From positions 9,036,204-9,100,203 of the forward strand of contig CM066925.1 in assembly GCA_033964015.1 (NCBI GenBank): DNA of 64,000 nt. Reading direction: 5' to 3'. Under the pieces are notes generated by a model, which had not been told where the DNA came from, searched no databases, and was given only the letters and a program-made list of their open reading frames with translations. The position numbers were made by a program, and so were the translations under genes. This document shows positions 119 through 38,793 of the stretch, one piece after another; the first letter of the stretch is position 1; the number at the start of each line of letters is the position of its first letter. Origin of the DNA: Scolanthus callimorphus. Lineage: Eukaryota > Cnidaria > Anthozoa > Actiniaria > Edwardsiidae.

Positions 119-1162
119 TTAAGGGAAACTCTTGCCTGTTTTGGTCAATGTTAGTCCCATTTTCTTCAAGACCTGTGGACTTGAAAATGTGTAGAGGATC
201 GGATTGATGGATGAGTTTACTGGGAGAACGAACACGGCGATCCAAGCGTACGCCTCGCCAGACGTGTCGTGAAAATTTTCCGTCAGCGACAGAGCACCTA
301 GCAATATAACAGGCATCCAACAACAGAAGTCTGTCATTATCACAAACAGTACTCGCATGGCCAGAGTAGAGTCTCTCTTCATGGATGAGCGAACACTTTG
401 AGATGACTTTTGCACTTTCAGGAATATTGCAATGTAAGATAGAAGGATGAAGAGGAATGCGAGTCCATTGAAAGTAATGAAGATCGCCACTGAATACTCC
501 CACCCTGCGGGCTTATCTGGCGAGAGCTGTAGTGGAAGGCAAACAGTGGAACGGCCGTAGAAGCTAAACCCTGATTTGTTGTCAGTAAAGTAACTGGGAA
601 TAAATAGCGGAAGAAACGACATCACCGCACCAATTATCCAAATAATAGCACAGACTGCTTTTGCGTATTTCATGTTGAAGTGGCGAGCGGAGAATCCTAG
701 TAGAATACTGTTGACTCTGTCTGCTGTGATGGCGATCAGAATCATGACGGATACTTCCCCCGACAGTGTAGATAATGCACCTGCTAGTTGACACGTTAGT
801 CCCGATCTCCAATCCACATCATGGCGGAAGTACTCGCCCTTCCACATAACATTATGCGAGCGGCCACCGTGATAAGATAGACTCCCATTAGCAAGTCTGC
901 CGCTGCAAGATTGCAGAGAAAGAACGCTTGTATTCCGCCTTTTCCTTTCAACTGTAAAGCATTCTCTGACAGTATTGTCCACCACACTATTACTGCTAGG
1001 TTGCCAAGACAAGCCAGAGTACCAAGGATCCAAATACACGCCTGGATTGCCACGTTTTTGAGCATGTCCTCACAGCTGGAGAACTGGTTGCCAGGGGAGA
1101 TACACTCTAAGCCCGGAACAGACTTTGTTGCGTAACAACACAATATGAAGCTGTCTAGAGTC
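119..1162 (-). CDS. Gene A exon 36: hinge and seven-transmembrane domain, with an apparent 1-nt frameshift
   Basis: Final exon. The hinge reads TLDSFILCCYATKSVPGLEC then FSSCEDML, typical of LGR receptors just before TM1. TM1 has CLGNLAVIVW, TM2 LAAADLLMGVYL. The frame then breaks near 835-865 and resumes at GEYFRHDVDWRSGLTCQLAG. TM3 ends ITADRVN (a DR version of D/ERY), TM6 has FCCWMPV, and TM7 has NSSINPILYTFS with the NPxxY motif. Cysteines for the ECL1-ECL2 disulfide are present (LTCQL, STVCLP). The tail is short (to LTLTKTGKSFP, stop at 119-121). The first frame ends 1 base out of step with the second. Family: rhodopsin class, relaxin receptor/GRL101-like. Confidence 0.85.
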
Positions 1163-1810: not shown

Positions 1811-1853
<43 letters not shown>

Positions 1854-4800
1854 AGCGTAGCAAAATAATTTTAACCAATACATTTTCTACAAAACAGCAG
1901 TAACCTACAGCTTTTGCAGACCAGTCAGATCTCCAAATACATCTTGTTCCACGTTCCTCTCTTTTATAGGGTTGTCATGTAGTGTCCTAAGAAAACAGCA
2001 GTGATAGGATCAGAACATTTTTCATTGTGAATGCTGAATCACCCTGTCCATAAAGCATATTGTTTTTGTTTACATGGTTCGTGCATAAGAAACTCACCTT
2101 ATGCGAATGATTTGAAAGACGTTTATAAGAGTTCGCACGATCGTGTGGCAAAATATGTTTAATTGACAAAAATGAAACGAAGGGTTGCAACTATATTCGA
2201 TGTGTTCTATCGGAAATGGCAACGACGAAATAAATTATGTTCAGGCAGGGACTTATATATTAAGTAGGGGCGTTCCTCTGATATATATTCTTCATAACAC
2301 GTTTTGACAGACCTAGTTATTTTTAGATTGGTATTTACTCTTGTTTTTATGCCGCTGCGGTCACGAATATTTAGAATAACAATAGCTGAGAACAAAAAGA
2401 AATCAGCGCTTGCACGTGCATATCTTGCAAATGACAGTCGACTGTAAAGCTACCGAGAAGAACGAGTTTGATTGGCTAGTAAAACAAAAGCTTTACAATT
2501 TTAGCGGTAAAACCGTTCTAAAAGTAACTACATTGTAGGTCTGTCAAAATGTCGCATCCATAGGGCAATACTAGAGAGGGACGCCCCTATTTATGAGCCA
2601 CTGGGTCAGGGTGATTCGTCTCTTTCAGACGAGGATGCTCTGGAGTCATGTTATTGTGTTTGTGTCGAGTTCTGAAAAGCCTTCCCGACCATTGGGGCCC
2701 CACTTAGGGGTCCGCCATCGAGCAGGAATGCCTCGTGCTACAGAGTCTGTGACAAGCCACATTTGCAGTGTCGCGGTAGAACGCACGGGTCCTACAACAT
2801 CCACTTCGTATACGGCTGAGGTGCACCCAGGCCTTACGCACGGTCCAGCTGGTGGTCGCTAGGCTTGGCGGAGAGAGAAAGGCCTACGGCAAACGCCGAA
2901 CTTCAGTCGCTCTTCTTCTGTCGAACCTTTCCTTCATTATACTTTATAGTCAATAAATTTCTATTGTTTTGTACTGGAACGGCGCAACTCCGGCACGGCA
3001 TTTGCCTGGGCCTAAGGGTGATTGATTTAATTGAAAAAAGCAAAGCTCACTTACAGCACATTCAGCAAGGCCATGCCTTTGAACGTCGATCTCCTTATTG
3101 CATCGATCTTATTGTTATGTAGATACCTAAAATATTTTCAATATTTCAACATTAATCAGAACAAAATGTTTATGCAGACAGTTTTGTTAGCCAAGCAAAT
3201 GACGATAACATTTGAAATTGCTACTTGTCGGCAAAAAAATTATATGCACATGAGATCAATTGTTCACGTTTCTAGCACGTCTTGCAATGGACGCAATTGC
3301 TCGTCCTTCGCGATTGCTGGAAAATGTCCTTGTGAATCTTGTTGCATCAAAACGACTACCGTTTTGTACACGATCGAACGAAATATTAAAATCGGTCACG
3401 AGATTCGCTTTTCGAGATCAAATCGACTTAAAATAGTGGAGCCTACCACAATCCATTTTCCTAGTTTCACTCGCGAGAAAGACGAGGACGGGAAACATTC
3501 CTCAAATTAATATTCGTGTGTGGTTATTCTGTACAAACGACGTACAAAAAATGACAAGAACGCACAAGTGGTAATACACTTACAAAAATCTTAAGTTCCT
3601 GTTTTGCTCAAACATTCCATCAGCCAGGTGCTGGAGTTTATTTCCTCGAAGGCTCCTGGAAGATTAAAAAAAAAAACGAAAAACCTTTTGACGACATTTT
3701 TCATAATTCCGCTGCGAACTCAGCACTACATTCGCCTTTGCCACGCGCCGTCATTTTGTTTCCAGAATGGCCCGAGCAGAAAAAAGCAATGAGCCAATCA
3801 ACTTTTTGGTTCTAAATACGAGTACTTTTTGGTAGCTTGGTAAACTTTTGTACCATAAATCCCAGCATCAGGCTTCGCTTTCCAACATGAGCAAAACCCG
3901 CGCCCTGCTTCGCCTCGTTTACATGCTGAAGAAATCGGCTGAAAAATTTAAGATGGCGCTTGTGTGACAAAGGCGAATGACCCGTTAATTTTATTTCAAA
4001 GTATTCACTGAACCTTTGTGGTTACTAAGTGTTGACTGTTGATAAAAAACGATTTGACTGATGTTGCTTTCTAATTCGCAAAATCATGAAAACCGCAGTA
4101 AAAAATCAAGTATTGTTTAGAGACACACTTACAGTAATCGGAGATTCCTCAACATCTTGAACGATGAACCATTAAGGCTACTAATGATATTTTGGGCGAT
4201 ATCTCTGTGAAATAAGAAAATAAGTGATGGTTTTACTTTGAAACTCTTCTTGTAGGAACTCGCAATCAATTTGGCTATTGCTCTAATTAACAATACCATA
4301 TTTTCAGAAGTTTAGCGCATTTTATGCTGTCGCTTTGGCACTTGCCATCCTGTTATTGTCCGCTAGTTTTTTCCGTGTTATGCTATGCGCGCTTGCGCCA
4401 CTGCTTCTGTGTTTGATTGTTAATGAAACCTGCTGACCAAATGAAACTTCAATTGACTAGTGTCTAACCCGAAAACCGTGGATGCATTTCTGAAGAAATT
4501 TTGTTTGTGAAATTTCGTTTGTGAAGTGTAACCGACAAACAAGCCTGGAAAAAAAAATACTTGAGGCGAGGCTTCACTTTACATCATAGGTGACCGGCCA
4601 AGTAATGATATTAATAAATAATAATAGTTTTCTGGTAATATTAACTTACAATTGTTGTAATGATGGAATTTCCTGAAACATTTCGTGTGTGAATTTCCTC
4701 AGGAAGTTGCCTCCGATGCGTCTGAAACAGATAGCAAAAGTACTTCGAACATGAGTAGTATAGAAGGGATAGAATTTGCCCTTTTTTGTGGAGCCAGGCG

Positions 4801-7800
4801 CGGAGCCATGACGTCGCAAATGAAGAGTCCATATTTGGCAACCTATTGTATTTGGAGACAATAGAAGGATAGCCCCATCCCTCTACTTTCTCAAGACACA
4901 ATAGAAGGACACCCACCCCACACTTCCTCAAGATACAATAGAAACAGATAAGAAAAGTATTCAGGTTAATTACGTCTGTTTTACGTTATCAGAAAGCCAT
5001 TTGATATAAAATATGAATGCAAAGTTCATATTAAGAAGTAAAAATTCAATTCTTTGTTGTGCCTATATCTATTTATTTTTAGATGTAACGTCATGTGTAG
5101 CGTTAAATAGCCCTCAAGTTTTTCTAAATATCATAAAGGAACACACACATTCGATTTCTGCAGAAACACGTTGATGCACATTCATTTTCATGGGAAAAGC
5201 GGAAATTACCATGACAAAAGAATTGTAATATATAGCTTTCCCATGAATGGGTAATGCTGCAGAAGTTTCAAAATCATAATTTAAAAAAACTTGATCTATT
5301 GTAAAGGGCCACAATACCGGTAAATGCTAATGAGCTCATATATTCTCCCCTGTAAAATTAATTAATCAATTTTAGAGCGGATTTCACATGACCGTCAACC
5401 CTTGTTATGTAATTGCGATTGCTTGGCGTTCTCATTGGCTACTCGTTTTTTTCAGCCAATCAAATGCTTTAGTAAATACAATTGCGTAATTACTTAGTAG
5501 AATTGGTTCGGCTTGTGATTGGCTGAGAGAAAAGCCATTTAGGAGCAAGTGGTGATTTCTCTCGATTCTGATTGGCTAGTGATTGCTCAATTGTAATTGT
5601 TTTCACGACAGTCATGTGAAATCCGCTCTAATTATTAAAACAATAACATCGCACCAAGAGTAAAATCGGAATGGAAAGGTTTTACTTTCCCTGCTTGGTC
5701 AATATTCAGGACATATGATTGTACAGAACCTCAGATTCCCTAAATCGTTATGCTAATTAGGCGAAAAAAGTACACAGATATCCGCCTATTGTTGCACATG
5801 ATTACAAGGCATACTTACAGTGAAATCAGTGCTGGTAGATTGGCGAATGCGCGTTTGCCAACTTCTATGATATGGTTGTATCGCAGATCACTTGAAGAAA
5901 AAATCACCGCTTAATATTTCTTTAATTTACGAAACAAAGTCGGTGGTATAACTACCCAAATATCATTGGAATATCCTCCCGGCATGATGTCTACGCTAAT
6001 GTCCGGTGCATACTACCGACATAACGACATAAGGACGTTATGTTGCAACGAAAAGAGCACGGGAAAATAATTAATATTTTCCATGGATCATCATTTGCCA
6101 ATGCAATCTTATGTTATGTTTTATGGACTTAACGTTTTGAAACCATTTCAATTTTGTTCCCGTGATAATTTTCTTATTCCGTTATGTCGCTAGTGTGCAC
6201 CAGGCATTAGCGACTTACACGTGCGTCAGCTTTTCAAAAAAGGCGAAGTCTCCTTTTTTGACAACGAAAATCTTGTTTCCAGTGAATATTCTGCAAAGAA
6301 AATTGTCTTAGAACGATGAAGTAACATATGAAGTCTAAAGTTCTGGTTAAAAAATAAAGAACGAAGTGCTACTCAACATTTTGTTAAGGGCTACAGTAAA
6401 TATTTATCACAGCGAAAAAATATCGTTGAAAACAGTTGAAGTTGGTTATGTTAAATTTCGTTTTGAAACCATTTAACCAGTTGACTTATGGTTGCGTCCG
6501 TGTATTTTTAGCTGAATTAAAAAAAAAAAAACGGCCCTCATCTTTAATCATCCTAATACCCATGAACAAACACCACTGAGTAAGTACATTGGTGTTAGGA
6601 AAGGTTCATGATTAAACAAATCTCATATAACATATATATTGATATGGTTATTACATGGAGTATATATCAGAAGGTAGCCTCTTTGGGACAGTCAACAGCT
6701 GCTGTGATTTGATCAGCACACCTCGATCGTCTTTGAGTTTCATACACTGGCAATCTGGCGGGCAGTCTGGAAAAGATCGAGAAAGGTTTAAAGAGTTGGT
6801 TGTAACATCCATAGGTCGTCCTGCAGATCTTTGTAGAAGCACATCAATGCTCTAGCCAATTTTCTAAACAAAGTATTATACCTTGCACACAAGTACCATC
6901 CGTTTTTCCTACGAGATAGAACAATGTGTTATTAGAGTAAAGGGTATTTCATGACTTCCATAACAGGAACAAAACAACAAATGAAATGAGATCTTAAGAA
7001 GTTTTCAATAAAGTTAGTCACGCTCAAAGAGAAAACGTGCAAAGCTAGTGGTACACGAAATTATGTATCTATCAGGTTTTCTTTCTGCGTGAGGAACTAA
7101 TAAAGATAACACTAAATATCAAGTGACTGTAATAAAACCAGATACACCTGGTAGCCAGTAATGAATGAACGAGAGAAAAAAGAAGTTGATGCTGAGTGCT
7201 TTCCCCGCTTGCCAATAACAAGCAAAGGAAACCATGAGCCAATCCAAGCAAGATCACTTATTGCGCGGTACGTACGTGATCATTTCAAACACTACTGTGT
7301 TAGTTCATAGAACTGAGCGACCAATAAGAATGACACTGATCTGAAACCTCTTTAGTTACGTCAGTCATTACTTACTTTTGACCATACGATAATAAACCTG
7401 GAATCCGGTTCTTACACCCTTGAAATCGGTTCTGAACACCAGCGTGACAGAGTTGTAGGTAGACCTGATGCTTGTAGGATATCTAAACGAAAGAACATTA
7501 ATTAATGCTGCTTCGAGAACATGTGAGAACTACCAGTAAAATCTTACATTAGGCTGTTCTATTTTATATCCGTTACCCCCTTGAAATACCACAGGGGTTG
7601 CTGTGTTTGATCCTGGAATTTCCACATGGCATTTGTTTTTACCCCGGAATGTCCACAGGGTATTCAACTTTGGAACTTCCACAGGCCTACAAGAGAATGA
7701 ACTCCCACAGGGGTGGCTTCAAATGTCGACAGAAGTTGTATTTGGAGTTCCTGACGGTTCCTCGATAGGGGGTACGGCTATTTTTTGAACAGCCCATAAC

Positions 7801-10800
7801 GCCCAAGACGAGTGTGGTCAAGCGCAACCTCTTTCGAGAAGAGGGACAGTGCTGTAAGGCTCGAATTTCGCTTCCACGAGATGGTAGCGGCCTTTTATCT
7901 CGAGAAACCCGGCGATCCCCTAAGCGATCTTGAGTTTTTGCCCGCGCGTGGCCTTGTCGTGGAGAAAAATCAAGAGGAGCAACGCTCTTCCATCTGCAAG
8001 CGGGCTACAATGCTATGCATATATCACTAGGAAATTCTACAGAAACCCATCCATGGAAAAAGCTGAACTTCCCAATGCGCACGTATGCGAAGTGTTTGGA
8101 ATTCGCATGGATAGCCATGGGAAATCCGAACATACCCATTCTTCTACCATAGGAAAGTCAGCTTTTCCCATGGATGGGTTTCTGCAGAAATTCGCTGTGT
8201 ATTCTGCCCCCATTTGGAAAAGAATATCATTATGTCCTGATGCTCAGGTAAATCTAAATCCTCACCGGGCGCCACAGTAACGTCCAATCCTCTCTGACGC
8301 GCCTCGATCGCTTTGCCAAACTTCAAGATGGTCAGCTTTACATCCATAGCTCCATTCCAAATAAAAGTCCATAAAATGTATTTCTATCACGTGACCCGTT
8401 ATAGCAGCTATGTTCCAAGTACAATGATCTTCGTTTCCATAGTAACCTGGGTAGTTTGGGGAAATTATGTATCCAGTCTCATTTCTACGTACTTCGTCAC
8501 ATGCTGTAAAAAAGTAAGCCTCAATTACCACTGTATGCATTGCTACGCGACCTCAAAATTACATGTTGCGATCTAATCTAACGAAAACGCTGGATTCGGT
8601 TACTTCAGTGGGTCGAAATTGATTGCCACATCAACGAAAATGGTTTTAAGCTATCCTTTGTTTTCCTTGCGTCAAATGTTTAACTTTCTGGTTCATGAAA
8701 ATTTACATTACAATTTTCTTGCGTAAAATCGCCAATCGCAAAAGTGAATTTTGAGATTGCGTAGCAATGCATACGGTGGTAAAAATTCGGATCTGACAAA
8801 TACAAAAAGTAATGTTCTTCATAGCCAGGAGCGTATCAAAAGTAGCCTTCATTTACTCCATTAGGTCTAGCCATATGCACTGGAGTAGAATGATATATTT
8901 TTAGACGAAGATTTTAGATTTAAACGGGAAATTAGTTCTTTTTGGGAGCGAGAAGGTTAGGTTCGACACGTGTAGAGCGTGAGATGGCGGTGCTGATTTG
9001 AGCCAACGTTCTCTTGAGGGGACATAATTAGTAACCATGACAACGAATTCTTGCGGGATTCAAAATCTATAAAAAAAATCATCTACTCCTGTGGTTGGAC
9101 GGCACGCCCTCCAGTAGGTGAGGCTCCTATTGATGGGCTTTGTTTCAGCTCACCCCTTTTTGCATATGTAGGTACCGTGTCGCACTTTTTCTCGGTATAG
9201 TGTAGTCCCCCAATAGCAATCAGTGCCTTTCCTGAATGACTTTCACCGGTGAGAATTATCTGTATGAAAAAAAGGCAGGCAGACATTACAGCGGATTTGT
9301 CGAGATTCGAGATGACTGTCGAATGTAAATCAGACTCGTGTTTTCAACACGTTCCTACTGGTTAAGGTCTTAAGGTCGTTTGGTTTGGTTTAGTTTAGTT
9401 TAAACCTTTAAAGTGGTTTTCATCCGACTGTGGAACAAATACTAATAGTCAGTGTTTAATAGTGCCTACTGCTCATAATTAAACAGGAGAATACAATAAA
9501 AATGGCTTTCATAGTGTATAGCAGTGCGTATTTTGTTAGCATCTATTCCACAGTCGGATGAAAACCACTCTAATTTGGATGGTAACCTCTAGATGACCAG
9601 GCGAGGTTGTTCACGCCTCTGAAGCTAGTTGGAGGGGGTAAACCCCCGTATCCGGAGATACTAAGTTTTGATTCAATTATTATAGTACATTACCACCTGG
9701 ATAGATGAATTTCCATAAACTAGTTTAGTTTAGTTTACAAATAAAAGTCCGAAGGAAAACCAAAACGTCGCGATCTTGTTCTCTTGAAGGACAGCAACGT
9801 GTCACAGTCCTTCACAGTCCTCATCGGCGCACCAGGGCTAAAAATATCGCATAAATACCTGATATGCAGTTACTGCTGTCAAAGGCACAATTCCTTCCCG
9901 CCAAATGGAAGTTGAATTGTCATCATCTTTCCAGACAGGCCTGGCGGAATAAGGTTTGTCGACAAGCTTTTGAAGGATAGTCAGGGACTTCGCACCGGTG
10001 CCGCACAATTTATACATAAACCTGAGACATTTGATAGGGACGTCCGATGAACTCTTACGCGGGCTTATAATGATTGCTCTATTCGGGTGCTGATTGGTTG
10101 TCTTCACAATGCCGAGATAGCCATCTGGTGAATAAACTCTCTCTCTCAGTGATAATATGGCTTAGGGTCATTCTCGAACCCAAAGCTGACCAGCTCGTTG
10201 CCTCGCAAGGGAGGCTCTGGTGACATCCATTTGAATGCCTTCTCTGATTGGCTGAAATGGCGGGCAGGCGTACATAAAAGTAGCTTAATCTCGCTTTAAT
10301 AGAAACGTATATGTCAAAATAAGACGACTGGCATTCGTTTCCTAGTCGTCTTTTCAACCTATGCCTTCGACTTGAACGCTCTAAAAGTTATTGTGAGACA
10401 AAAAAACACCATTTTCTTTTTCACATGCGTCGGTGGATGTCACCAGAGCCTCCCCCGCGAGGTGACGAGCCGGGGAGGTCTAATTACGAGAATGGCTTAG
10501 GGCCGGTTTCGCTTGAACGCATGCGCAAACACAAAAGCAATCATATCGAGCTGGTACATTTCTTTTTTGGGGATTCACACCATTTTCGCAGCAAGAGCTT
10601 CCCTGCTAGTTAACTCGCGAGGGAGGCTCTGCCGGTAGCCATTTGAGGGCCTTTCTTGATTGGCTGATTGTAAAGTAAGTGCATGCGCAGAAAGTACTCT
10701 CTTTCAAAGGCTCTCTGTCAAATCTGGCGCTGGAATCAATGACCGCCACCGCTAGGCGACAAACCGGGGAGCTCTGAGTACGGAAATGGGCGGAGAATGG

Positions 10801-13800
10801 AGGGCAATAATTTATTTTGTCATTATTGTTGTTATCGTTATTGGCTTTTTAATTGCTGTTGCTGTTTGCCAATATTGGCTTCGATTTCCGTGTAATTTCC
10901 GTATATATGGCTTCCTCTTATCATCTACAAAGCATCTGGTGTCTAGACTAAGCTTTGTACAAATGTGAACTATAACATATCAGACCAGCATAGAAATGTT
11001 TAGAATTGTCCTGTGTGTGGTGATCTGATTGTATTTGATAAACTTCCCAATTGAGTATTACACGCAAAAGACGTACTTGTTTTTCCTCGGCACGAAGACG
11101 TGACTTTGCTGCTATCGTTCAAGCTGTTTAAGAAATATTTCCAACTGAACAAGTTCCCAGAATCTGGCAGTTGACAGGAATATGAACGAAAGTAGATATG
11201 ATCTTCAAGAAGCACGTGACTCCACAACTGGAACTTGAAGATTCGTATGACAGCAGGCCACGACGAATTAACCACTGACTTTAGAATTACATTGAGCGTG
11301 TTGCCGTCTACAATAAAAGCAGCGAATAATTTTTGTCGCCAAAAAATATTATTATACATCGGAGTTGATATTCTAGCTAAAATTCGCCTAACACGAACAA
11401 AACCATAAAGCTTTTTGCTATCGGAAATGGAGGGCGAAGCAATGCATCATGAGCAGAGTCGGGTCTTTCAGATGCGAACGTTGCGAACGAGGTTTGTCCT
11501 TGACTCGTGCGATCTCTTCGACTGTTGTGTAGCTATCTGGTTGATCCTGCCAGTAGTCATATGCTTGTCTCAAAGATTAAGCCATGCATGGCTTTGTATC
11601 ATGCAAAGCTCTGCAAATGCGAGTCGCTGGGGTCTATCTAGCCTAGTTAGCCTGAGCATAGTCCCACTGATCTATCCTGATCCTCATCCACCACTGTAGG
11701 GTACGTTAAGTACTTCCTACCTTCGCGTCTGATTAACGTTTTACGCTTATTGTGGTCTAAGCAAGGTAAGTCGGGTACCCTGTAGAGAGTAGTCTGATTG
11801 TCATCCGCTACGGTAGAATTCGTTGGTACTTCCTACCTTCGCGTCTAAGCAACGTCCGGGGTCAAGTGTTCTACCAGGCCGATTTGGGACAAGGAATGTT
11901 GTTTTTGATTTGTTCAAATCACTGAAAAAAATTGCTGATTGATTTCTTTCGAAAATCATTAGGGAAAAAGCTATCTACTAATTAAAAGCTGAATCGGCGA
12001 AACTGTTGTATCTGTTGAGGTATAAGTTGAGCTCTGATTGGCCGATAGAAGCTGGAGGAAACTTAAAACTTCTTTGTGATTGGCCGATATTGTCCACGTG
12101 ATCCCACCCCGTGACGTTGAGGTAGGAGGCGCCAACGTCATCTACCGTAGCGGATGATAATGAGGCTAGGGACTATCATAGTAATGGATCATAGTAAAAA
12201 GACGTAATCCGTGCACTTACAGGTGAGTTTCCTTGATTGAAGCAGACCTACTCCTTGCTTTAGAATTGAACCTTCTTTATAGAGTCTCCATTCTCCAAAC
12301 AAAGACCTCCACGTATAACAGAGGTGCTCCCATTGGTGTGATCTGCTAGTAAGATGATATATTTCTAGTTAAAGTGCTTTTGTGGGTGGAAATACTGGGC
12401 TATTATTATACAATTGTTACGTCCATTCACATATTATATATGGTCAAAATTTAGCGCAGCCATAATTACACATATAGTCATATATAGGGGCGTTCCTTTG
12501 AGATATATTTTTGTAAGGCGTTTGACAGACCTAGTTATTTTGAGATTGGTATTTAGTCTTGTTTCTAGGACGCTGACAATTGTAGCAGAGAACAAATCGA
12601 TGTTTGCACGTGCATATCGGTTGTTAATGAATAGCTGCTGACAAACGAACATGATTGGTTAGAAAAACAAATTTACAATTTACAATTAGCGATGAAACCG
12701 TTTTAAAAATAACTAGGACTGTAAAGATGCTTCACGAATAGACGAAATCGGCTAGCGGTATTTACACCTTGTTGCTACCCAATTAAGATCATGTGATGAT
12801 TCATTTGGTGGATACTTTTGTTAGTTCTGCACATACATTCGTGCACTCGGCCAAGTGATACCAAACGGACAATTGCAACCACCCAAAGGAACAACCACAT
12901 GATCTGAATAGGCCTCTTTACTTTGGGCGTAATGTTGTTCCTTCTTTGTTAATTTTCTGCTACGCAGAATATATGAATGTGGAAGCATGCCAAACAAACA
13001 AAGAATGCCACGTGATCTGAAATTGGACAACATTACGGCCAAGGTAAAGAGGTATATTGGTTTGCAACAAGATATAAACACCGTTAGCCGAATTGGTCTA
13101 TTCGGCAATACCAGAGCGAACGCTCCTATCTATGAGCCCCTGCCAAAAGCCGTATTACACGATTCAAAGTCGTATTCGATGTAGCAAACCAGTTGCGAAC
13201 CGGTAGCCATGCCTATCCATTGCAAACAGTCATGTAGCTTTGTTGTTACCTTTGAAATGTTTGATTGCTCATTGTGGTTTCCCTACTCAGATATTTATAC
13301 GACATCACCATGGTAACAGGATTAACCAGTTTCATCCAGGTGCAGAGAGAAAACTCTGATAGCACCTGAGTCAAGGGAATATTTATCACACAGCCGCTTT
13401 CACTTTGGCATCCCATCAGTAGTCCATCATGCTCTAAAATGAGAGAAATGTAATCCATGAATAGGCGGCTAATTTTTGCTGATGAAGTGCAACCAAAAAG
13501 GCGCGAGAGTCTATGTCACCTTGACGCCCCAAAAATAGAGGTATACCAATCCTTCTCTGTTTTGCGTGGCACTCTCGAGGAAATCTTGCTTGCTACATCA
13601 TGAATTTAATATACTGGCATACATTGGGTCACATGAAAGAAAACAAACACTCTGAAATGACAAAAGGTAACCAATCCCCCAAAAATCGGTTTGTTGTTTC
13701 TGGTTTTTGTTCAAAGGGTTCAGACGTTTCGGTATTTCGGTGACGATGCCGAAATGTTCTGTTGCGTTACTCGCCTTCCTTATACTGGCAGACGTGCTTA

Positions 13801-25800: not shown

Positions 25801-28800
25801 TAACATCGTTGAGGGCATGTAACCGAAGACTGAGAGGACATTGGGGACAGTAGACACCACGGCAGCAAAACCTGTAGGATGCTTGAAGCAAACAAAAACT
25901 ACAGTTTGGGCTGTGTCATGGTTGTTTCAACAAAATGAGACATGTGGTCTACTTAAATGAGCCAGAATCCTATTAAAATTTCAGAAAGAAAGAAGGAATT
26001 AGAATTTGCATTATAACCATTTTTTTAGAAAGATTGCGAAATAGCTCTCGCTTATCTAGTTTGTAAGCTGTTCATAATTACATACCGTTAAGAACAAGCT
26101 GGGATCCAAGGTTGACTTTAGTATTGATCACATTCATAATGGTGAATTCCAGAACTCTATTACCTACAGAAAGAGGACATCATAACCCGTAAAACCTGCG
26201 ATGTTGATGTTGATACTGAAACCCGTTATCCAATTATAGACTGCAATAAGTAGATTGGAAAGTAAAAGATCATTGCAAGAAAGCAAGAAATCAATCCAAG
26301 CGATCGCTAAAAAATAGAATATTGCTTTCCCGCGGTTGCTTTACTTTAGAGCCATGAAGCCAGATATGGAAGCTTAGTTGAAGTATTGTGTTCTTCGAAA
26401 GCCTTACGAGAAAATAATGAAGTATCGGAATAGATTCCCGCGAAAATTAAAATCAGATTTCATGCATTCTTGTTAAGTTCTCAACACCTGATGACCGACC
26501 CTGATCTCTCGCGGTGAAACGAAAAAGGTAAAAAAAAAATTCGAAACAACTGTCATTTCCAAGATTGTACGCCTTTTCGTTGACGGGAGTACTAAGACGG
26601 TCATGACGCTGGTTGAGATTTAAGTTTCAGCTTTGCAACCATACTTCCCCCGGAACCCAAAAGCTTTGGTTTCCCATAAGGTGCCAAAGAGGTCATCCAA
26701 TAACACTCTCTGATCTCTAGCCAGGGATCACTTAGACGTTCAGATATCAAGACGTTTCTTGATTTTATTTAAGAAGAGCATTCAGCAAGAAAACCAAAGT
26801 TTCGAAAAGATCCATCTTCTGGGCTAGCCAGGTGACCACCTTTTCCTTTTCATTGGACATCCGTGAACTTGATCGTGAATATCAGGCTCAGGACCTCATA
26901 ATTTCAAAACGTACGCTATGTTAGTATGTACTTAGTAGAAATATTTACAGTCATTACTATAGCATGGTGTGGCAATAAAGCGTTATTTGTCTTGTAAGAA
27001 GTAGCAAGAATGGTACCATGGAGACACATGGAATTTCTGCAGAAACCTATTTTTGGAAAATGCTGAATTTCCCATGAAACAAAAAATGGGAAGCATTCTG
27101 CCTTCCCTTATGGCAATTCCGAACACTTCCCATTCTTGTGCCATGGGAAATACAGCTTTTCCCAGGAATGGGTTTATGCAGAAGTTCCAGAGGCTCGAGG
27201 GCCGCTTGAAGGTCGCGAGGAGCTAAGCGACGCCCACGACTATTTTACTACAAGAAACAGGGCAAAAGCGATCCTGAGGCTCTGGTCACGTTAGGGTACA
27301 AGTATGGTGTCCTTACCAGGTATTTGCCAGAACGTCATGTTCAAAGGAAAAGGATGAATGTTGTCATCAGTCTGTCGAGGAAATCTCAACCCCAGCGTGA
27401 AATGATTGAAACCAGCGTCAACCTTCAGATAACTCCCCAAGTAATACAAATGACATTTACTTAACAGCACGCTTTTGCTCTGGTCTGGAGTACTAGAAAT
27501 AGAAAGTTGGAAATTGTTGGAAATTCCACCAGTTAGATCCGTTACAATCTGGAAGAAATGCTAATGAATTTAAGCTTGTAGGCATAATTTGATCCTACAA
27601 CAATAATTCAGAGTTTATAAAAAAGGCTATAAGTATAGGTAATCATACGACTTCGAGTGCAATTTGAAATTAATTTGCACGAGTGAGTTTTTCAAAAAGT
27701 ATCAAAATTGCACGAGCCCGTTAGGGCGAGTGCAATTTGAGCTTTTTGAAAAACTCACAAGTGCAAATTAATTTCAAATTGCACGAGAAAAGTCGTATGA
27801 TTACTTATTAATAATATACCTGCAAAAATTTGAATAAAAGTTTGAATAAAATGAACTTGACACAACAATTTCATTTAAAAGGAACAGGTGGAATTCTGTT
27901 TTGTCAATCATCAAATTTATTTCCGATTCCAAGGTAAAATAACATATCAGCGCCTGAATTTACTGGTAGGTTTCTTTCAGTTTTGATTTTGAATTGATTT
28001 TGAATATTACCAAAATAATTGTTTGTGTTCGGTCAACCAAAACAAGTAAAATATTGTCCAGGTAAACATAGCTTCCACAGAAGACATACCTGAAGTCTTA
28101 GCTCTTGTGTAAACTTTCTTGTAACAGCTAAACAACGAAGTTTTACCGGCAGGTGTAAAGTACAGGTCACAGGTCGCAGGTCGCAGGTCGCAGGTCACAG
28201 GTCGCAGGTCGCAGGTCGCAGGTCGCAGGTCGCAGGTCGCAGGTCACAGGTCACAGGTCGCAGGTCGCAGGTCACAGGTCACAGGTCACAGGTCGCAGGT
28301 CACAGGTCGCAGGTCACAGGTCACAGGTATTTTTACGAAGGTAGATTGACTTCTATAAAAATAACACCCCTCTCTACATCCTGTTCTCTTTCAAATGCGA
28401 TGTTTATTACAACAATGCGCATTATTGATTGTGGGCGACTGCAGGGAGCCCACGAGACTTATCTCGACAGGGCTTCGGATCACAGGTCATATTTTTAGTA
28501 CTCATATAAAAATACACCTGAACTTCTCTTTGTACTTTTGCTCGAAGATCGGTTTGCTAATTACCCATAAAATTCGCAATGCTGTATCGCCAGGTACTTT
28601 TGGCAATTGGTTGTCATTCATTTTTACGTACTAATATCTACAAATATCTACTATCTACATGATGTCAGCCTAGCAACATACCGAGACAGAAAGCATCAAT
28701 TTCCATCGGCTGATTTAGGGAATGTATTGCAATATTTCTGATTGAATTCGGTAAACGAATAATAAAACTTTGTTTAAAGAAGACTATTTCAAGATGTCTA

Positions 28801-31800
28801 CACGTAATTCATGTTTTGGTATCGACTGAAAACAACAACAAAAGAGTGGCTCACTAGGGCTGCACTTTTAAAAAAGTGCAGGATAATTAGACACACGGTG
28901 CATTTAATGAGGATTGTAATTATACATAAATAAAAAATAAGACTACATCAATAAAGGGAAGAACTATGTTTATTCCAGATAAACATGGATACACAAATAT
29001 CAAGGACTTCAAATTTCGGCTGTCGTCGCAACGTCCATCGAATGTAAATGTATAACTAACTCAGTTCAGTACAAACGAATACAGTAAAAACCCGCATATA
29101 AGAACCTGAATTTGAAGAACCTGTAAGGCTAGAATTATCCATATTGTGTAAAAACCCATGTTTCCTAATTTATTTTAGGCTAAAATTCTAGGTTCTTATA
29201 CTCGGGTTTTTACAGTACCAGTTCACTTACCAAAATATAACATGTTTTTCTTCAACAACGCACTCAGTTCAGTGTATCAAAAAATGTTTACAAACGAATA
29301 CGAAATTGACTTACCAAATGAAGTCAAGATGGCATTGTCTTTTAGTATAATCTGTAATGTTAACAACATAACATGTTGTTCTTCAACGCACTCAGTTCAA
29401 TGTTCAATGTTTCAAAAAATCTTACAAACGATTTTTTTATAAAAGTCATACCTTCTTAAAAATACCTGTGACCTGTGACCTGCGACCTGTGACCTGTGAC
29501 CTGCGACCTGCGACCTGCGACCTGCGACCTGCGACCTGTGACCTGTGACCTGCGACCTGTGACCTGTGACCTGCGACCTGTGACCTGTGACCTGTGGCCT
29601 GCGACCTGTGACCTGTACTTTACACCTGCCGAAGTTTTACAGGAATTTGACCCCGGGAATCTTTCCGTATCAAGTGCTTTCGTGTAGACTTGTGCACTTC
29701 ATTTTTCCCGCTAGATTCACAGTCAACGAAGATTTTCCTTCATTTCCTTCCATAACAAAGAACCCAAACTAAAACAAGTCTTGCTTAAGTCCATAAGGAA
29801 TTCACATTTTGCTTTCCACAAGTTTCGGAAGATGAATTTCATGAAAAGAAACCGATTTTTCTCCCTCCATGCAATCGATCTCCATCTTGGCTGGCTCAAA
29901 AGAATCGAGTGGCGTGATTCAGCTAGCGCGCATTTGATTGGCTCGTACGCAAAATCCATTGTTGTATAAGCCAATAAGAAAGCGAGAAATTTGTAATTTG
30001 CACTGAAATTACATTTTTTTGCACTGAAATTACATTGAAATTGCACTACTCTCGACCAATCAGAATCGAGAAATTTTTGCGTGTATATTATTATATTAAT
30101 AATAATACAATAATACATTTAAAAGCATTTATATCGCGCCGGCTGCATTGTAATATGATCGCCGCCGCGTTACAATCCGTGGAAAAAAAATATAAAAAGC
30201 CTAGGTTTAAATGTACATTCTTAAAATATATACATTAAATATCTTAAAATATATACAGTATATTTCCAAAAATCTTTCTAATAAAAATAACTATCTTAGC
30301 GCAGACCGTGTACAAATTTGGTAAATTATGCAACGGGAATGTAACAAACGTTTTTCACAAAAAACGTTTCAGATAACTGAAGCCGAACTAACTGTAAAGA
30401 CAACAGATCGCCAAATGCCATTTCCGCTCTGTCATTGCAATGTGTACACTGCTCCTTTTTTCGTACCTGAAAAATTTACTTTTTTCATTCTTTCTTTGTC
30501 ATAGAAACAAAGATATTTTTGACAGAAGTATGCCTCATCTGTAAGTACACATTGCAACCAATTGTAAAATTGCGTCATTTGATACTCACATTTCATAATT
30601 ATTTTGTAACACAGGAATCGAAGTTTTGATAATGAGCTCCTTCTCAGATCCCTCGTCATACAGACCGACCTCAGCACACCTTCGTAGCCAGACTTCACAT
30701 TCAAATGAACATGCTGCCATCAATGTGTAGTCTCCTTGAGTTATAGGCTGAACATGGACACATATTCACTTGTAACCTCAATTAGCCTCAATTTGTCTTG
30801 GGCTAGCAAATGATCTCTCTCAGATTCGCAGAATTTATCCATTGCTCAGAATGCTCCTCTCTGCAATTTCTGCAGATAACTTAGATAACTCAGAAGGAGG
30901 TGATTAATAATTCATAGGCTTCACGGTAGAACGAACCTACATATGTCATGTTAGCCATGTAGCTTTAATGAATTATTAATCACCTCCACTGTGAGTATCC
31001 CATCTAGCCACGACCATTCGAAATAATAGCTTAGCAGTGCTATGAACGCACCGCTAAATTAGGACGACGATTGCTCTGGAAAATATGTTTTACTTGGCTG
31101 CCATCAGATCAAGTGTTTAAGGGTTATGAAACCTAACACCATGCAGGAGCCTAGGAGGATTACCTAGGAGAGCGTCCATCTAAGGGTGGGAAGGTGTAAC
31201 ATCGAATTGGAAAATGAAGCAGGTCTGAAGTTATTGCTCGTAGTGAGCGGAGAGCAACACTAATCTGCTACAGTAGCTTATTACCTAGGAGCGTCCATCT
31301 AGGGGTAGGAAGGTGTAACAGCGAATTGTAAAATTAAGTAGGTCTGAAGTTATTGCTCGTAGTGAGCGGAGAGCAACACTAATCTGCTACAGAAGCCTAA
31401 TTACCCAGGAGCGTCTATCTAGGGGGGGAAGGTGTATCAGCGAATTGGAAAATGAAGCAAAATTTTAGAACAATTAGATTTGTCGCTAAAATAAGCTTCT
31501 CTGAACAAAGCATTCTAATTGGCTGAGCGAATGTGTGGCGTAGGCTTGGCGTGAAAACTTGAAACTAAAAATTACTTCATTAGGGAGTCATTTTCTAATA
31601 CGTGGTAGATTGACGCTCCTAGGTAATGAAATCCTGGAACAAGATAAAACATACTTACGATGACAAATGCCTCAGTTCTTGCAGCCCTCATTTCAATGGG
31701 GAAATGCATTTGGTTGTATTTCTCAAGGGCTGCAAACCGGTGATAAATTAGTGAATCATCAGGCTTCGAGTTGAACTTGTGGTACGTCTTTAAGATATCG

Positions 31801-34800
31801 GGCATTCTTCTAATCTCGTACCATCCAACCTTCCAATGGCTATAAACCACTCCATGGAAACTTTCCCAAGAATCTAATGTTGAACATATCAAAAAAGTAT
31901 ACACGCATTTACACATAGCGTAACTAAGCGTCCGTAGAATAAAATGAGTAGTACTCACCAATAGCAAAAACGTCTATTCTGCATATCGACAGCCTGACAT
32001 CGTTCCCCCTCAGGGTGACATTAACCGTGCTTGTCCTAAAATCCACTGCACATCTCACTGTATACTCCAAGTTTTGTACCTCTAGCGCTTTACACTGAAT
32101 GGTTAAACCGTCACCAGTGTTCGTCCCCAAGATGATGTCAGTGGTATTTAGCTCAGTCGAGTTGCTGAGTTTCGCATTGAAGAACACCGTAACAGTGTGA
32201 ATATAAACATCACTTGCTAGCTTTGCAGCAAACCATGGCCTCATTTCCTGTGATATGGAGGGAAATCAAATGAACACACCCATGCTCCTGATAAATTGAT
32301 GAGCCCTGTCAAGCTTAAAGAACCCAAATAAATAATTCCATTTTTTCGATAAAAAACTCAAAAGAAGTTCAGAATTGCCGTAAAAAACTTTATAAGGGAC
32401 CAGTGGTTTAAGAGCGCATGACTGTAAGTGAAAGCAATTCATGAGTAATTCGCTATCCAAATCAGATGCAATAGTATGACTTTCAACAACAAACCAATCA
32501 GAGAGCAGGGAGACTCACAATCTCTCCTTTTCGCGAGCGAAGAATGAGCAAAGTTATCACAAGTAATTGTGTAATTGTTTTCTCTATGCAAATTGATTGG
32601 CTGAAGGATCAAAGGTCATGTCCACGCCCAATCACAACCCGAAGCAATCGCAATTACAAAGTAATTTGTTATTACTCACGACAGTCATGTGAAAACCGCT
32701 CTATTTGAGTCGGATGGGATGGTGGAGGAGAAAAGGTAAATGGTGAAAAAAAAAAATAAAGACCCCCTGCCCTCTTTCTAGGTCATGGATAAAGGGGTAA
32801 CTCAGAAGGACCTGATTAATAATTTATAGGATAAACAATCGAACGAATACATGGCATATGTAGGTTCGTTCTACCGTGAAGCCTATGAATTGTTAATCAG
32901 GTCCTTCTGACTCATCCCTTTAAGCAACGACCCCCTTTCTAGCGTTTGATGTTTTTTTAGTAGCCCCTCTTATATTTATCTCCAAAAGAGTCGATGATTC
33001 GAGGATTTGAAGACATCCCCTAAAGTTTTTATTTCAAAGCCCCCAATGTTCTAGTTAATTTTATTTATGGCTATCCAATTTCTCCTCTATCATCCCCTCC
33101 GACTTAAATAATGACCGGTCCCTAAAATTGACTCCCAAATCTCTGCTTTGACGTGCAAAATTTGGATGCCCAATACCATCAGTGTTTAGATACTTCAAGT
33201 AGCTACATTATTGTCTTGAAAACATTAAACCTGGACTTTATTTACACACGGTACAGATATCAGTTATACAAATAGCTACTTTTTAAATTTCAACGTGTTG
33301 ATCCCGCAAATCGTAGGGGTTGGTACCAAAATGAAACATTTTAAATGAAATATTTCAATCGCGGGGCCCAAATTAATCAAAGAACGTAACTCTTGTGTGG
33401 AATCTGCAATAATATCTTCTATGTCTGAGGTTTTATTGTTGTTCCTTTTTCTCAACGTGCCAAATTCAGATAGTTTTTTCTTTCAAGAAATCATTGATGA
33501 AATTAAACGGGAAAGAAATTGAAAGCAATTTGCCAAAAACGTTGGTAATGGAATTAATTCTATAGAGACTACAAATTGTGTGTGCGCAGATGCGCTCAAA
33601 TTTAAAACTAGTGTACACAGAGGAGACAAATGTAACAAAAGAGGCTTTGTGGCTGAATAGATTCAGTTTTTAGAAATTTCCTAGAGATTAAATGGATATT
33701 TACTGAGTAAGTGAACATGGTATTTTTTACTTTGAGTTACGCCACATTATTGGACCAAGCAGGCTTAAAACTGTTGCTTTTGTAGATGTTGCGCAGATGC
33801 ACTCAAAATTAAAACCAGTGGACATAAGAGACACTGTACGAAATAGGCTGTCAATAGGTTCAGTTTTCATTTTTCCTCGAGGACTTAATGGATATTTGCT
33901 GTGTAAATAAAAAATGGTATTTTTTCAAAGTCAAACAAGCTTACTGTAATGATCTCAAACTCATTTCGATAATTCATCGAACTTAAACAAAGAAAACCAT
34001 GTGCGCATAGGTTGGAAAACGCGGCCTTAATTTGCAATTCCTTCTTTTTCTCGACATTAAATGGTTCTTTTTCATCAATATTTCGAAACACCTCGAAGCC
34101 GGCTAAAAAACCTCGGGTTTGCCATGTTTTTTCAAACCACCTCTCAGTGTTTGATATATTGTAGGTTAATCCATTACCTGATTAGGGAATTCCACACTAA
34201 ATCTCACGCGAAAAATCGATATCGCCCGCTCGCGCAGCGACAAGGGCGATATCGATTTTTCGCGTGAGATTTAGTGTGGAATTCCTGAGTCGGGTAATGA
34301 AATTTCTTTGAAATCCCATGCCGGAGGTTTTATTGATTTAACAATTTACAAAAAGGGCTTTAGGAAGCCATTGCCAAACTGTTTCATTTTCAGGAAAATG
34401 CAACTTAAAAATCTTGCTAGCGAAGCGTTTACGAAAAGGCGTTTCATCTGTTTGACAGAGTTTAAACCTTTAGAAAGTAATTGTTCTCGCTTTGTACTTT
34501 TGCAGCCATGTAATTCCGCAAAAAAACTCTCTCGATTTCAGCCAATCAGCACGCGAGATAGAGTCATAGCATGGGATTCTACATGAAACGTGTCCTGTCT
34601 CGTGTTTGATATAAGATAACTTGGGATCTCGGCAACATGCATCACAATTTGTATGAAAATCAGCAGTCTTGCCAATAAAACTTACCTGCATTACATATTA
34701 GGCGGATATTTAACCATTATCCTGCGAGATTGCGCAGAATATTGTCTGATACTTAGCCGACGAGGGACGAAGTCCCGAGTTGGCTAAAATCAGACGATGT

Positions 34801-37800
34801 TCTGCAAAATCGAGCAGGATAATAGTTTTGTTATTCAGCACATCGATAGCACAAAAAACCCCGAAAAAAAAGACTTTTGTGTATTATTTACGGGCTCAAA
34901 ACATCATATTTTCCTCAGAGACGGATATTGCAGGATAGCTGTCATGTACAGAAGACAGCTATTGGCGCTCCAATGACCATATTTGGGCAGTGCATCGATG
35001 TGCTGAATAATAACAAGGGATATAAGTGTGTAGGGAAAAAGACATTCAAATAAACCGTTAAACAGCCCTTCTGAAAATATCATTTGCCAACATTACCCGC
35101 TCTGTGATGAAGCACCCGTCAAGACTTTCAGTGAGCACAGCTTCCGGAGGGGCGCTGTATGTACCCATACTTGAAAATTCGGTTTTGTTTAAGAATCCAA
35201 CTGCAACTAGTACATGGATAGGGAGACGACAATTAAGAATGTTCAGTAAGGATCCCATTTAACAATTAGACTACGAGTTCGAGTATTCTATGAGTTAAAA
35301 TTGAACTTCAACCGACACCGCATATCTATTTCATTTTAGTATCATCCAACTAGTGGACTATTGCCAATGCTGCATTCTGATTGGCTACGCTACTAGGGGA
35401 CTATTATCAATAGACCTCTAGTAGCGAAAGCGCCGATTTTGAACAGGAAAAGCCAATGGCGGCCGCTTCTCGTTTTGTCGAGATTTCTGGTGATTTTTAA
35501 AACATTTTTTCACTTTTTTTGACCAACTAGTTGGGTGATACTAAAACAATTAGACCTCTCGCCCTCAAGGGCCACGGGTCAATAGGCCCTTTCGAGCTCG
35601 AGGTCTAATTGTTAATAAGCCAGAGTTTGTGGTATCGTGACACTGCGCTGATGCTAATGTTGGGGTTGCTACAGTGAAGAGCATTTATAATTCGAATGCC
35701 AATCTCAAGTTCCTTTTTGCACAAAAGGCTCCTGCATAACAGGGCACACCCAGGTGCATGTCAAATGAAACGTATTTTTAATTAAGCAATAATAGTACTT
35801 TCCGTGTGCTCTCTGCTTTCTTACAAACACGAGGGGGATGTTGAGAGAACTGATCAAAACTTGAAAGACACGAGCCGAAGGCGAGTGTCTTTTAAGTTTT
35901 ATCAGTTCGACCAACATTCCCCGAGTGTTTGTAAGAAACCAGAGAGCACGCAGAAAGTATTTTTATTGCTATTAGAAAATAACATACACACGCGCGACAG
36001 CGTTACGTGACAATCGTGTTTTTCAGGTCTCTTACAAACACGCTTTTTAACCAATCAGAATGCGCACATTCACAATACAACATAGGTGTTATTTTCTAAA
36101 CATTTTTGAAACATGCAATATTGTCAACAAAGTTTAAAACAGTGAAGAAAGAAAATATTTACATGATTTTAGTACGCATCCGCGTACTTTGCGAATTTCG
36201 TAGGGCAAATCCTTTTCTTGGTTTCCACGTGACGTCATGAAATTCTAACTTCAAAACTTAAAACTCTACAGAGACGAACAATTGTTTACAACTCATCCGG
36301 GCGAGCCTTCACACAAAATTTCATATTATTGTCATTCTTATTTTGATTTTCTAATATTAATTATGCACCACCTCTGCATCCTATCTCGCTTTTTTCGTAC
36401 TTTTATTTTATTTTGCTTTGTTTGTATACTCGTCGTGAAGTCTTCCCTGTGCTTTTTCCCTCTGCAACACACAATCTATAGTACCATCAGTGTTCCCTTT
36501 TCTCTCCGATACATACATTACAATTTTTCCAATCTTAAGCGCACCCTAGCTCGATTAGTCTAGTGCTACACTAGGTTGCCTGTACAAACTATTTTATGTC
36601 AGATTTTGCACCTATAAACTACCTGCCTGCCTTACCTTAACTATCTTTTTTATAACCAAATGTAAACTGCAAAGTACAAAATAAAGATTGTTGTTGTTGT
36701 TGAGTCACGCAACACGAGTCACGTATTTCAAAGAGCCGATTCGTACACTATTTCTCTAAATTCACTTTGTTCTTTAGTTTGAAAGGATCCATCATTTAAC
36801 TAAGTTGTTACTGAAACATGTAGATAACATCTTGGTCCATATTCTTGGTATTTGTAGGCATTTAAGAAGGTTGGTAATTTGGCGGCCATGTTTGTGCCCC
36901 CAGCAGGAGCACAATCATGGCGGCGGCATACTTTTACTACAACAAATCGCATGCGTTCAAACACTTATATCTCGGTCGTGAAAAAACGCATGAATTTTTT
37001 CTCCAAACATTATTTTATATCTTCTTTACACTTATGGGGTTTATTTGGCATCCAGGGCAAGAGTTCAGGAGATAGTTTTAGTCACGTGACATGTGAAAGC
37101 CAAGAATAGGAGTGATACAAAGTAATTGCGAATTATCGCCAGCGATAATGGAAGAAGTTATCATGCTCGAACTCGTCACAAAACTGATTAAGCGTCTTTG
37201 AAATGGCATGGGTGCAAACGGTTGGGGGCAACATAAATTGGAGATTTTAAATGGCCACTTCAGTGGCGTTTAATTATTAAACCAACATCGATTATAACCG
37301 AGTTTGGATACGCCACCCGCCACACCATGAAGGCAACTGCTGTATTTCTCACATTACGTACCTGAGGGATATCCGCAGCTCAGGCCCCACAAGAACGTAT
37401 ACCTGTACGGGTAATAGGGATATTCGTGTGTGCATTCGAATAGCGAAGATTCGTTGCCATAACAACGTACAATAAACATCAATGCGTCTGGGCGTGGCCA
37501 CTCATAGTACGAAATATTCTCCCGTGTCCGCGCCACCCAAGCATTTTGCAGCAAATCTCGGCGATCACATTGAACTGGCAAACTGATCGGCTGGATTTAC
37601 ATCCAATACCACCCCATCGACCGTTCACAAAGACCTCTACATCTCCTTGATTTGGTGCCCCGCCATTTATTAACCGTATTCCTAAGAAGCGAATACATTT
37701 TGTCAAACATTTTTTATACTTAGGCTGCGCGCGCGCTTATTTTGTTTTTATTTTCGTGGTATTTCCTCTTATATACCACCGAATGACGTAATAAAGTGGT

Positions 37801-38793: not shown

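What the first reader, a model, noticed from the sequence alone, without database searches (positions are those of the whole stretch)
119..38793. A relaxin-receptor-like GPCR with a giant mosaic ectodomain
Thirty-six exons with matching splice phases join a signal peptide, SRCR, F-type lectin, PA14, an unknown module, four MAM, three LDLa, D8C, pentraxin-like and CUB domains to an LRR plus seven-helix receptor. Relaxin receptors normally have one LDLa and about ten LRRs. The CUB-to-LRR-cap junction is phase-matched and has no start codon or signal peptide between, which ties the mosaic part to the receptor. A receptor that couples lectin-like and adhesion modules to G-protein signalling could sense microbes, symbionts or matrix; that function is inference.
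Basis: partly seen in the sequence, partly recalled or inferred. Interest (0 to 1): 0.92.

Follow-up and report, generated by a model that had tools for sequence, protein, structure and literature searches.

The report
Mosaic anthozoan LRR G-protein-coupled receptor gene
A sea-anemone- or coral-type animal gene joins a long string of scavenger-, lectin- and adhesion-type modules to a hormone-receptor-like G-protein-coupled receptor; related anthozoan proteins keep the same order of modules, so it is real, but what it senses is unknown.

Summary
On the minus strand, 38793 to 119, I rebuilt about 40 coding exons (about 2,260 residues): signal peptide, SRCR, F-type-lectin-like, PA14, an unnamed conserved module, MAM, two clear LDLa plus a degenerate third, MAM, MAM, D8C, pentraxin/LamG-like, MAM, CUB, LRR cap with seven LRR exons, and 7TM. 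It is one gene: long anthozoan proteins match it colinearly across the CUB-LRR junction. Nematostella LOC5515157 has nearly the same architecture.

It is a type C LGR. The closest solved receptor is RXFP1, but it falls among anthozoan, GRL101-like receptors, not classical relaxin receptors. Simpler mosaics are in print (Nematostella LGR with CUB and fibronectin II; snail GRL101s with a C-type lectin near a schistosome-resistance signal). My searches showed no paper on this architecture.

Caveats: two in-exon frameshifts (assembly error or damaged allele); the 3' end may continue past the window.

Most likely a recognition or adhesion receptor signalling through G proteins; an insulin/relaxin-like peptide receptor is the main rival. 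In passing: many relatives carry a kinase-like C-terminal tail, not reported in the papers I searched and not seen in this window.

The parts
38703..38793 (-). exon 1: start codon and signal peptide (MTSLSVIASLVSYLILLLGTKSRA...)
   Evidence: hydrophobic N-terminus, donor score 4.4; no meaningful homology support
37362..37681 (-). SRCR exon, with a frameshift near 37487
   Evidence: Pfam SRCR 3.8e-9; tblastn to P0003 in two frames, 6.5e-6; frameshift
31959..35200 (-). F-type-lectin-like module, exons 35200-35097 and 32247-31959
   Evidence: local HMM seeded partly with the window itself (circular); 26% identity to the P0003 module; neither exon passes the single-exon test
27317..31633 (-). PA14 module, exons 31633-31576, 31053-30984, 30747-30590, 27492-27317
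   Evidence: P0003 tblastn 27488-27300 E 6e-4; two of four exons pass
24481..26163 (-). unnamed conserved module X, exons 26163-26086, 25881-25706, 24556-24481
   Evidence: P0003 tblastn 25888-25709 E 6e-7; middle exon z = 21, the two others do not pass; no Pfam match
22703..24400 (-). MAM 1, exons 24400-24311, 23933-23686, 22811-22703
   Evidence: Pfam MAM, 4 stretches in all; two of three exons pass
20637..21508 (-). LDLa 1 and 2 (21508-21284) and a degenerate third LDLa (20747-20637)
   Evidence: Pfam LDLa, 2 stretches; both exons pass
17328..18974 (-). MAM 2, exons 18974-18831, 17781-17531, 17433-17328
   Evidence: Pfam MAM best stretch, model residues 797-955; two of three exons pass
15475..17160 (-). 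MAM 3, exons 17160-17059, 16258-16002, 15565-15475
   Evidence: all three exons pass
14622..15005 (-). D8C (uromodulin-like) exon
   Evidence: Pfam D8C_UMOD 3.9e-12; P0001 5.8e-28
11077..14103 (-). pentraxin / laminin-G-like module, exons 14103-13954, 13433-13250, 12342-12221, 11307-11077; one short exon probably missing from the model
   Evidence: Pentaxin 0.033, below cut-off; orthologs pass Laminin_G_3; two of four exons pass
9154..10124 (-). MAM 4, exons 10124-9859 and 9259-9154
   Evidence: both exons pass
7376..8503 (-). CUB, exons 8503-8266 and 7482-7376
   Evidence: Pfam CUB 3.1e-25; both exons pass
6767..7375 (-). intron joining CUB and LRR cap; 609 bp, no AATAAA/ATTAAA
   Evidence: P0001, P0003 and P0121 have CUB, LRR and 7TM in one protein, in this order
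1909..6766 (-). LRR cap exon 6766-6655 and seven LRR exons: 6290-6219, 5890-5819, 4721-4650, 4204-4133, 3655-3584, 3126-3055 (72 nt each), 1986-1909 (78 nt), joined by phase-2 introns
   Evidence: 7 of these 8 exons pass (not 6290-6219)
119..1162 (-). last LRR cap, hinge and 7TM exon, with a frameshift near 837-860; stop at 121-119
   Evidence: Pfam 7tm_1 1.9e-30; P0121 3e-109 in two frames; RXFP1 3.1e-65

Best explanation
One gene encodes a type C (GRL101-like) leucine-rich-repeat GPCR of an anthozoan whose roughly 1,700-residue mosaic ectodomain is the recognition part. Shown: the gene, its module order, its conservation in relatives, and a rhodopsin-class 7TM with CWMP and NPILY stretches. 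Inferred: SRCR, F-type-lectin-like, PA14, MAM, LDLa, D8C, pentraxin-like and CUB modules bind surface, microbial or matrix ligands; binding or pull is passed through CUB and the LRR arc to the hinge and 7TM and activates a G protein. The slowly evolving 7TM is the fixed output and the faster-evolving outer modules the changing input.
For: Relatives with the same modules in the same order through the junctions. Identity to Nematostella P0003 is 25-35% for SRCR, FTP, PA14, X, MAM and LamG, 38-42% for D8C, CUB and LRR, 53% for 7TM; the two LDLa, 57 and 47%, break the gradient. The 7TM is closest to RXFP1, solved with Gs. Snail GRL101-like receptors with LDLa, LRR and a C-type lectin domain form a cluster in a schistosome-resistance region (PMC12297450, passages). 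The Actinostola gene model P0128 runs from a 7TM end into three SRCR and an FTP-like part, which fits tandem copies of this gene type.
Against: No ligand, expression or signalling data. The identity gradient may be plain drift. The fucose-binding motif of F-type lectins (recalled) is not apparent in the FTP-like part. In the snail study the validated and top variants lie in a non-GRL101 gene inside the cluster. Type C LGRs with known ligands bind insulin/relaxin-like peptides. Two frameshifts question whether this copy works.
Confidence: 0.5

Rival explanations
1. It is a peptide-hormone receptor: the LRRs bind an insulin/relaxin-like peptide as in RXFP1, LGR3 and LGR4, and the mosaic part only positions the receptor or traps the peptide.
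For: Closest solved receptor is RXFP1. Veenstra proposes GRL101 as a second IGF receptor (PMC8286064, passages); Roch and Sherwood suggest insulin-like peptides of cnidarians might bind their type C LGRs (PMC4079206, passages).
Against: The LDLa tethered to the LRRs that RXFP1 needs for activation (PMC4837482, start of abstract in the listing) is replaced by CUB, with the LDLa far away. Several paralogs with differing ectodomains exist within one species (six Oculina and five Nematostella proteins among the first 24), which fits varied ligands better than one hormone.
Confidence: 0.3
2. This copy is a recently damaged allele or pseudogene; the intact function lies in orthologs or in another copy.
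For: Two frameshifts in about 6.8 kb of coding sequence, in the SRCR exon and in the 7TM exon.
Against: A complete series of exons with usable splice sites could be chained without any other break, and the 7TM stretches read intact; a small indel error in the assembly would look the same.
Confidence: 0.2
3. Two adjacent genes: a secreted or membrane mosaic protein upstream and an ordinary LGR downstream, fused only in the model.
For: A 609-bp intron with an ATG and a partly hydrophobic frame at 7235; gene models in tandem arrays can be fused wrongly (P0128).
Against: 22 of the 24 best relatives, from several genera, have CUB-LRR-7TM in one protein; the junction is phase-matched; no polyadenylation signal in the intron. 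The relatives are predicted proteins, so a shared mis-fusion is not strictly excluded.
Confidence: 0.03

Closest known systems
Nematostella vectensis LOC5515157 (P0003, 2940 aa, uncharacterized protein)
   Same: Module order SRCR-FTP-PA14-X-MAM-LDLa-LDLa-MAM-MAM-D8C-LamG-MAM-CUB-LRR-7TM; same supported set of ten rows in the 7TM tree; no kinase-like tail
   Different: Six SRCR instead of one; 53% identity in 7TM, 25-42% in the other modules except LDLa
GRL101 (type C2 LGR, first from Lymnaea)
   Same: Rhodopsin-class LGR with several LDLa and six LRRs (PMC8286064, passages)
   Different: Lymnaea GRL101 has twelve LDLa; the related Physella protein P0028 shows only LDLa, LRR and 7TM in my scan; the Lymnaea sequence itself was not examined
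Relaxin receptor RXFP1
   Same: Closest solved receptor; type C LGR
   Different: One LDL module and nine LRRs (PMC9545775, section 7), none of the other modules
Biomphalaria SudRes2 GRL101-like receptors
   Same: LRR GPCR with LDLa and a lectin-type module, proposed for host-pathogen recognition (PMC12297450, passages)
   Different: C-type lectin instead of SRCR/FTP/PA14/MAM/D8C/CUB; molluscan
Nematostella Nvec-LGR4 (CUB and fibronectin-II modules)
   Same: Anthozoan type C LGR with LDL and CUB (PMC9545775)
   Different: The legend names CUB and fibronectin II; SRCR, PA14, MAM or D8C modules are not named in the part of section 7 that I read

Membership tests
Type C LGR (LRR-containing class A GPCR) | rhodopsin-class 7TM preceded by LRRs | tested here: met
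   7tm_1 1.9e-30 and LRR_8 1.5e-21 in the model
Type C LGR (LRR-containing class A GPCR) | closer to RXFP than to type A/B LGRs | tested here: met
   RXFP1 3.1e-65, FSHR 8.2e-41, TSHR 8.3e-32, LGR4 2.0e-31; the eight FSHR/TSHR/insect LGR rows split off 100/100 in a midpoint-rooted tree
Relaxin receptor (RXFP, type C1) | one LDLa tethered to about nine LRRs | tested here: not met
   two to three LDLa separated from the LRRs by MAM, D8C, LamG and CUB; seven LRR exons
Relaxin receptor (RXFP, type C1) | binds relaxin-family peptide | not testable with these tools
   needs a binding or signalling assay
GRL101-like (type C2) | several LDLa plus about six LRRs | tested here: met
   two LDLa pass, third degenerate; seven LRR exons
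GRL101-like (type C2) | groups with bilaterian GRL101 to the exclusion of RXFP | tested here: inconclusive
   only one RXFP row was at hand, on a branch of 2.34; fork 93/77
GRL101-like (type C2) | kinase-like C-terminal tail seen in many relatives (a feature I propose, not one from print) | tested here: inconclusive
   not in the model, and only 118 bp of the window remain; absent from P0003, present in P0001
Adhesion GPCR (class B2) | GAIN/GPS domain before a secretin-type 7TM | tested here: not met
   no GPS, GAIN or 7tm_2 among the 12 families at E up to 0.1

The most novel reading that the evidence does not exclude
Anthozoans hold a family of class A GPCRs, with counterparts in many bilaterians, that act as pattern-recognition or self/non-self receptors: fast-changing mosaic ectodomains of scavenger, lectin-like and adhesion modules feed one conserved LRR-7TM output, and in many members that output includes a built-in C-terminal pseudokinase. 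The window gene is the SRCR- and D8C-bearing branch of this family.
Probability: 0.3. Interest if true: 0.88.

Novelty: new variant of a known kind. Interest (0 to 1): 0.66.

Why it matters
Animal pattern recognition is usually thought of as Toll, C-type-lectin, NOD or scavenger receptors (general knowledge). [quoted passage not shown] The family is testable in Nematostella and Exaiptasia, where relatives sit in public databases as uncharacterized or GRL101-named proteins, and the snail resistance region gives an outside reason to test it.

Tried and rejected
Two-gene reading: rejected on colinear relatives. A short intron instead of a frameshift in the 7TM exon (model, intron 970-903): rejected because relatives read straight through there. 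A first signal-peptide guess near 38125: rejected, it gave no model. An exon of minisatellite at 29625-29466: rejected as repeat. Exon start at 27548 for PA14: given up for 27492, which fits P0003's spacing. Adhesion-GPCR reading: no GPS/GAIN. Search with residues 1-1300: 10 proteins of 3176 candidates, mostly LDLa proteins such as LRP, one MAM-LDLa protein and one Acanthaster mosaic receptor (P0247); it did not list P0001 or P0003, so the ectodomain shares too few exact words for this tool and absence of close orthologs cannot be concluded. One search scored only the 7990 candidates sharing most words and listed 120 of 634; no vertebrate RXFP was listed, so C1 against C2 is untested beyond one row. 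The VIA-align rows cover only residues 1-354 of the model; the tail was barely tested there. Rfam: no match. The genome search on the window's own assembly did not complete, so the species, the frameshifts and the 3' end could not be checked there.

Papers: seen as listings with starts of abstracts; as passages PMC8286064, PMC4079206, PMC12297450, PMC12716839, PMC6267866, PMC2246102, PMC9545775 (also section 7, part 1 of 2), PMC11521371, PMC11863921. 'Not in print' rests on those searches of an open-access library only, most of them lists capped at 8-20 papers of up to 1,094 (30,231).

Full report
What was checked. The window is 64 kb without N, eukaryotic by its gene structure. I rebuilt the minus-strand gene with a dynamic program over splice sites, codon bias and seed peptides that I picked by eye from the translations before any homolog was fetched, letting an exon change frame once at a cost. 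One search gave 39 exons and 2239 residues. Adding one LRR exon found with a relative (5890-5819) and relaxing the splice thresholds gave 42 exons, of which I drop two small ones (20227-20150, 20100-20077): 40 exons, about 2,260 residues.

Module content. Pfam on the 2239-residue model: MAM (four stretches, 3.8e-60), 7tm_1 (1.9e-30), CUB (3.1e-25), LRR_8 (1.5e-21), LDLa (two stretches, 1.2e-19), D8C_UMOD (3.9e-12), SRCR (3.8e-9); pentaxin only 0.033 and under its cut-off. PA14 and the F-type-lectin-like part have no Pfam match in the window; they rest on local profiles seeded partly with window sequence (so circular for the window), on their place between modules that match P0003 and, for PA14, on tblastn (6e-4).

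One gene. With the LRR-7TM part as the scored region and the whole model setting the length range, 133 proteins of 7513 candidates passed and 120 were listed; 23 of the first 24 are anthozoan by the names given. Of those 24, 22 have CUB directly before LRR and 7TM, 12 have the FTP-PA14-X block, two have D8C (P0001, P0003) and one has SRCR (P0003). tblastn of P0001, P0002 and P0003 runs down the window in order to 7TM, apart from cross-hits among LDLa and MAM copies. Exon by exon, 29 of 40 exceed all 40 of their own shuffles against six relatives; 3 of 60 intron segments do. Of the 29, the signal-peptide exon is a meaningless match. The 11 that fail are both F-type-lectin exons, two PA14, two X, one exon each of MAM 1 and MAM 2, two of the LamG part and the first LRR. 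The CUB-LRR intron has no AATAAA or ATTAAA.

Which receptor. Among solved structures RXFP1 is first (3.1e-65), ahead of FSHR (8.2e-41). In a 65-row tree of 7TM parts the window sits in a supported set of six (100/98) with two Exaiptasia and three unnamed rows, then in one of ten (100/98) with Nematostella LOC5515157, Actinia and Actinostola; the last of the ten, a Lingula row, has a branch of 1.91 and its place is unsure. The one RXFP row has a branch of 2.34, so type C1 against C2 is not settled by the tree. The ectodomain speaks against a classical relaxin receptor. The species is probably a hexacorallian, by this placement only.

State of this copy. Two exons change frame (SRCR near 37487, 7TM near 837-860); relatives read on without a break in both places. 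The model forbids stops inside exons, so their absence is not a test, but the rest of the gene could be chained without another break. Error and recent damage cannot be told apart here. After the stop at 121-119 only 118 bp remain. A GC-type donor-like site at 136/135 (seen by eye), and P0134, whose frame runs similarly up to KTQSKG, make a further exon possible.

Mechanism. Shown: gene, modules, conservation, 7TM. Inferred: the outer modules bind surface, microbial or matrix ligands, and CUB plus LRR pass this to the 7TM. Identity to P0003 falls from 53% in 7TM to about 25% in the PA14 and F-type-lectin-like parts, with LDLa (57, 47%) as exceptions. Snail GRL101-like receptors with a C-type lectin module lie in a schistosome-resistance region, though the validated variant there is in another gene of the cluster (PMC12297450). 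The rival, an insulin/relaxin-type peptide receptor, is supported by proposals for GRL101 and cnidarian type C LGRs (PMC8286064; PMC4079206).

Novelty. In print: cnidarian LGRs with several LDLa (PMC4079206), Nvec-LGR4 with CUB and fibronectin II modules and nine Nematostella LGRs outside types A-C (PMC9545775), C-type-lectin GRL101s in snails (PMC12297450), and SRCR, CUB or lectin modules on amphioxus adhesion GPCRs (PMC2246102). Searches for GRL101 with coral (6 papers) or anemone (4) and wider, capped ones showed no paper whose title, listing or opened passages describe this architecture. Hence a new variant of a known kind.

A second thing. Many relatives carry a C-terminal kinase-like tail. 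Of ten proteins that I scanned, chosen mostly because their listed domains hinted at it, eight match Pkinase or PK_Tyr_Ser-Thr at E up to 0.01, six of them above a curated cut-off, and two (P0003, P0128) do not. A single anemone tail (P0021) finds 30 of 250 held proteins at E up to 1, itself included: mostly anthozoan, four hemichordate at 2e-10 to 1.4e-6 and a starfish at 0.003 (E-values for 250 proteins); it finds none of the ticks or molluscs. The iterated profile reaches 50 of the 120 proteins then held, ticks and molluscs among them, and not the window, but iteration may overreach. The tail of Porites P0178 is predicted with block means of 74-96 pLDDT (residues 401-660; whole model 79.4, pTM 0.51), and JAK1 kinase chains appear among the fold matches from 2.5e-8 on, with rmsd 6.6-11.8 and no aligned range shown. 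In P0001 and P0002 the likely catalytic-loop stretch reads HNGITPANI and HNNISTRNI, so it looks like a pseudokinase (motif knowledge recalled). [quoted passage not shown]

Noticed in passing
relatives P0001, P0002, P0005, P0124, P0178 (anthozoan), P0030, P0044 (hemichordate), P0064 (annelid): GRL101-like receptors carry a C-terminal kinase-like tail that seems to lack the usual catalytic motifs and is predicted to fold like a kinase. Not found in the papers searched.
   Followed up: partly
P0128 (Actinostola sp.): Gene model runs LRR-7TM and then three SRCR plus an F-type-lectin-like part: looks like the end of one copy fused to the start of the next, i.e. a tandem array.
   Followed up: partly
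window 48500-51644, minus strand: Upstream neighbour looks, by eye only, like an ADAMTS-type metalloprotease gene (LGSEHD zinc-site-like stretch, thrombospondin type 1 repeat).
   Followed up: no
window 28000-28310 and 29380-29760: Minisatellite-like repeats reading VTGHRSQ and PVTCDLR inside an intron of the gene; a third tandem-looking array at 48930-49290.
   Followed up: no
P0003, P0001 and others, before the first MAM; window 26163-24481: A conserved cysteine-containing module of about 110 residues (SYRFCCxGxxCP) without a Pfam family.
   Followed up: partly
window 119-136, minus strand: Possible GC-AG donor just before the stop codon, so the coding region may continue beyond the window.
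   Followed up: no
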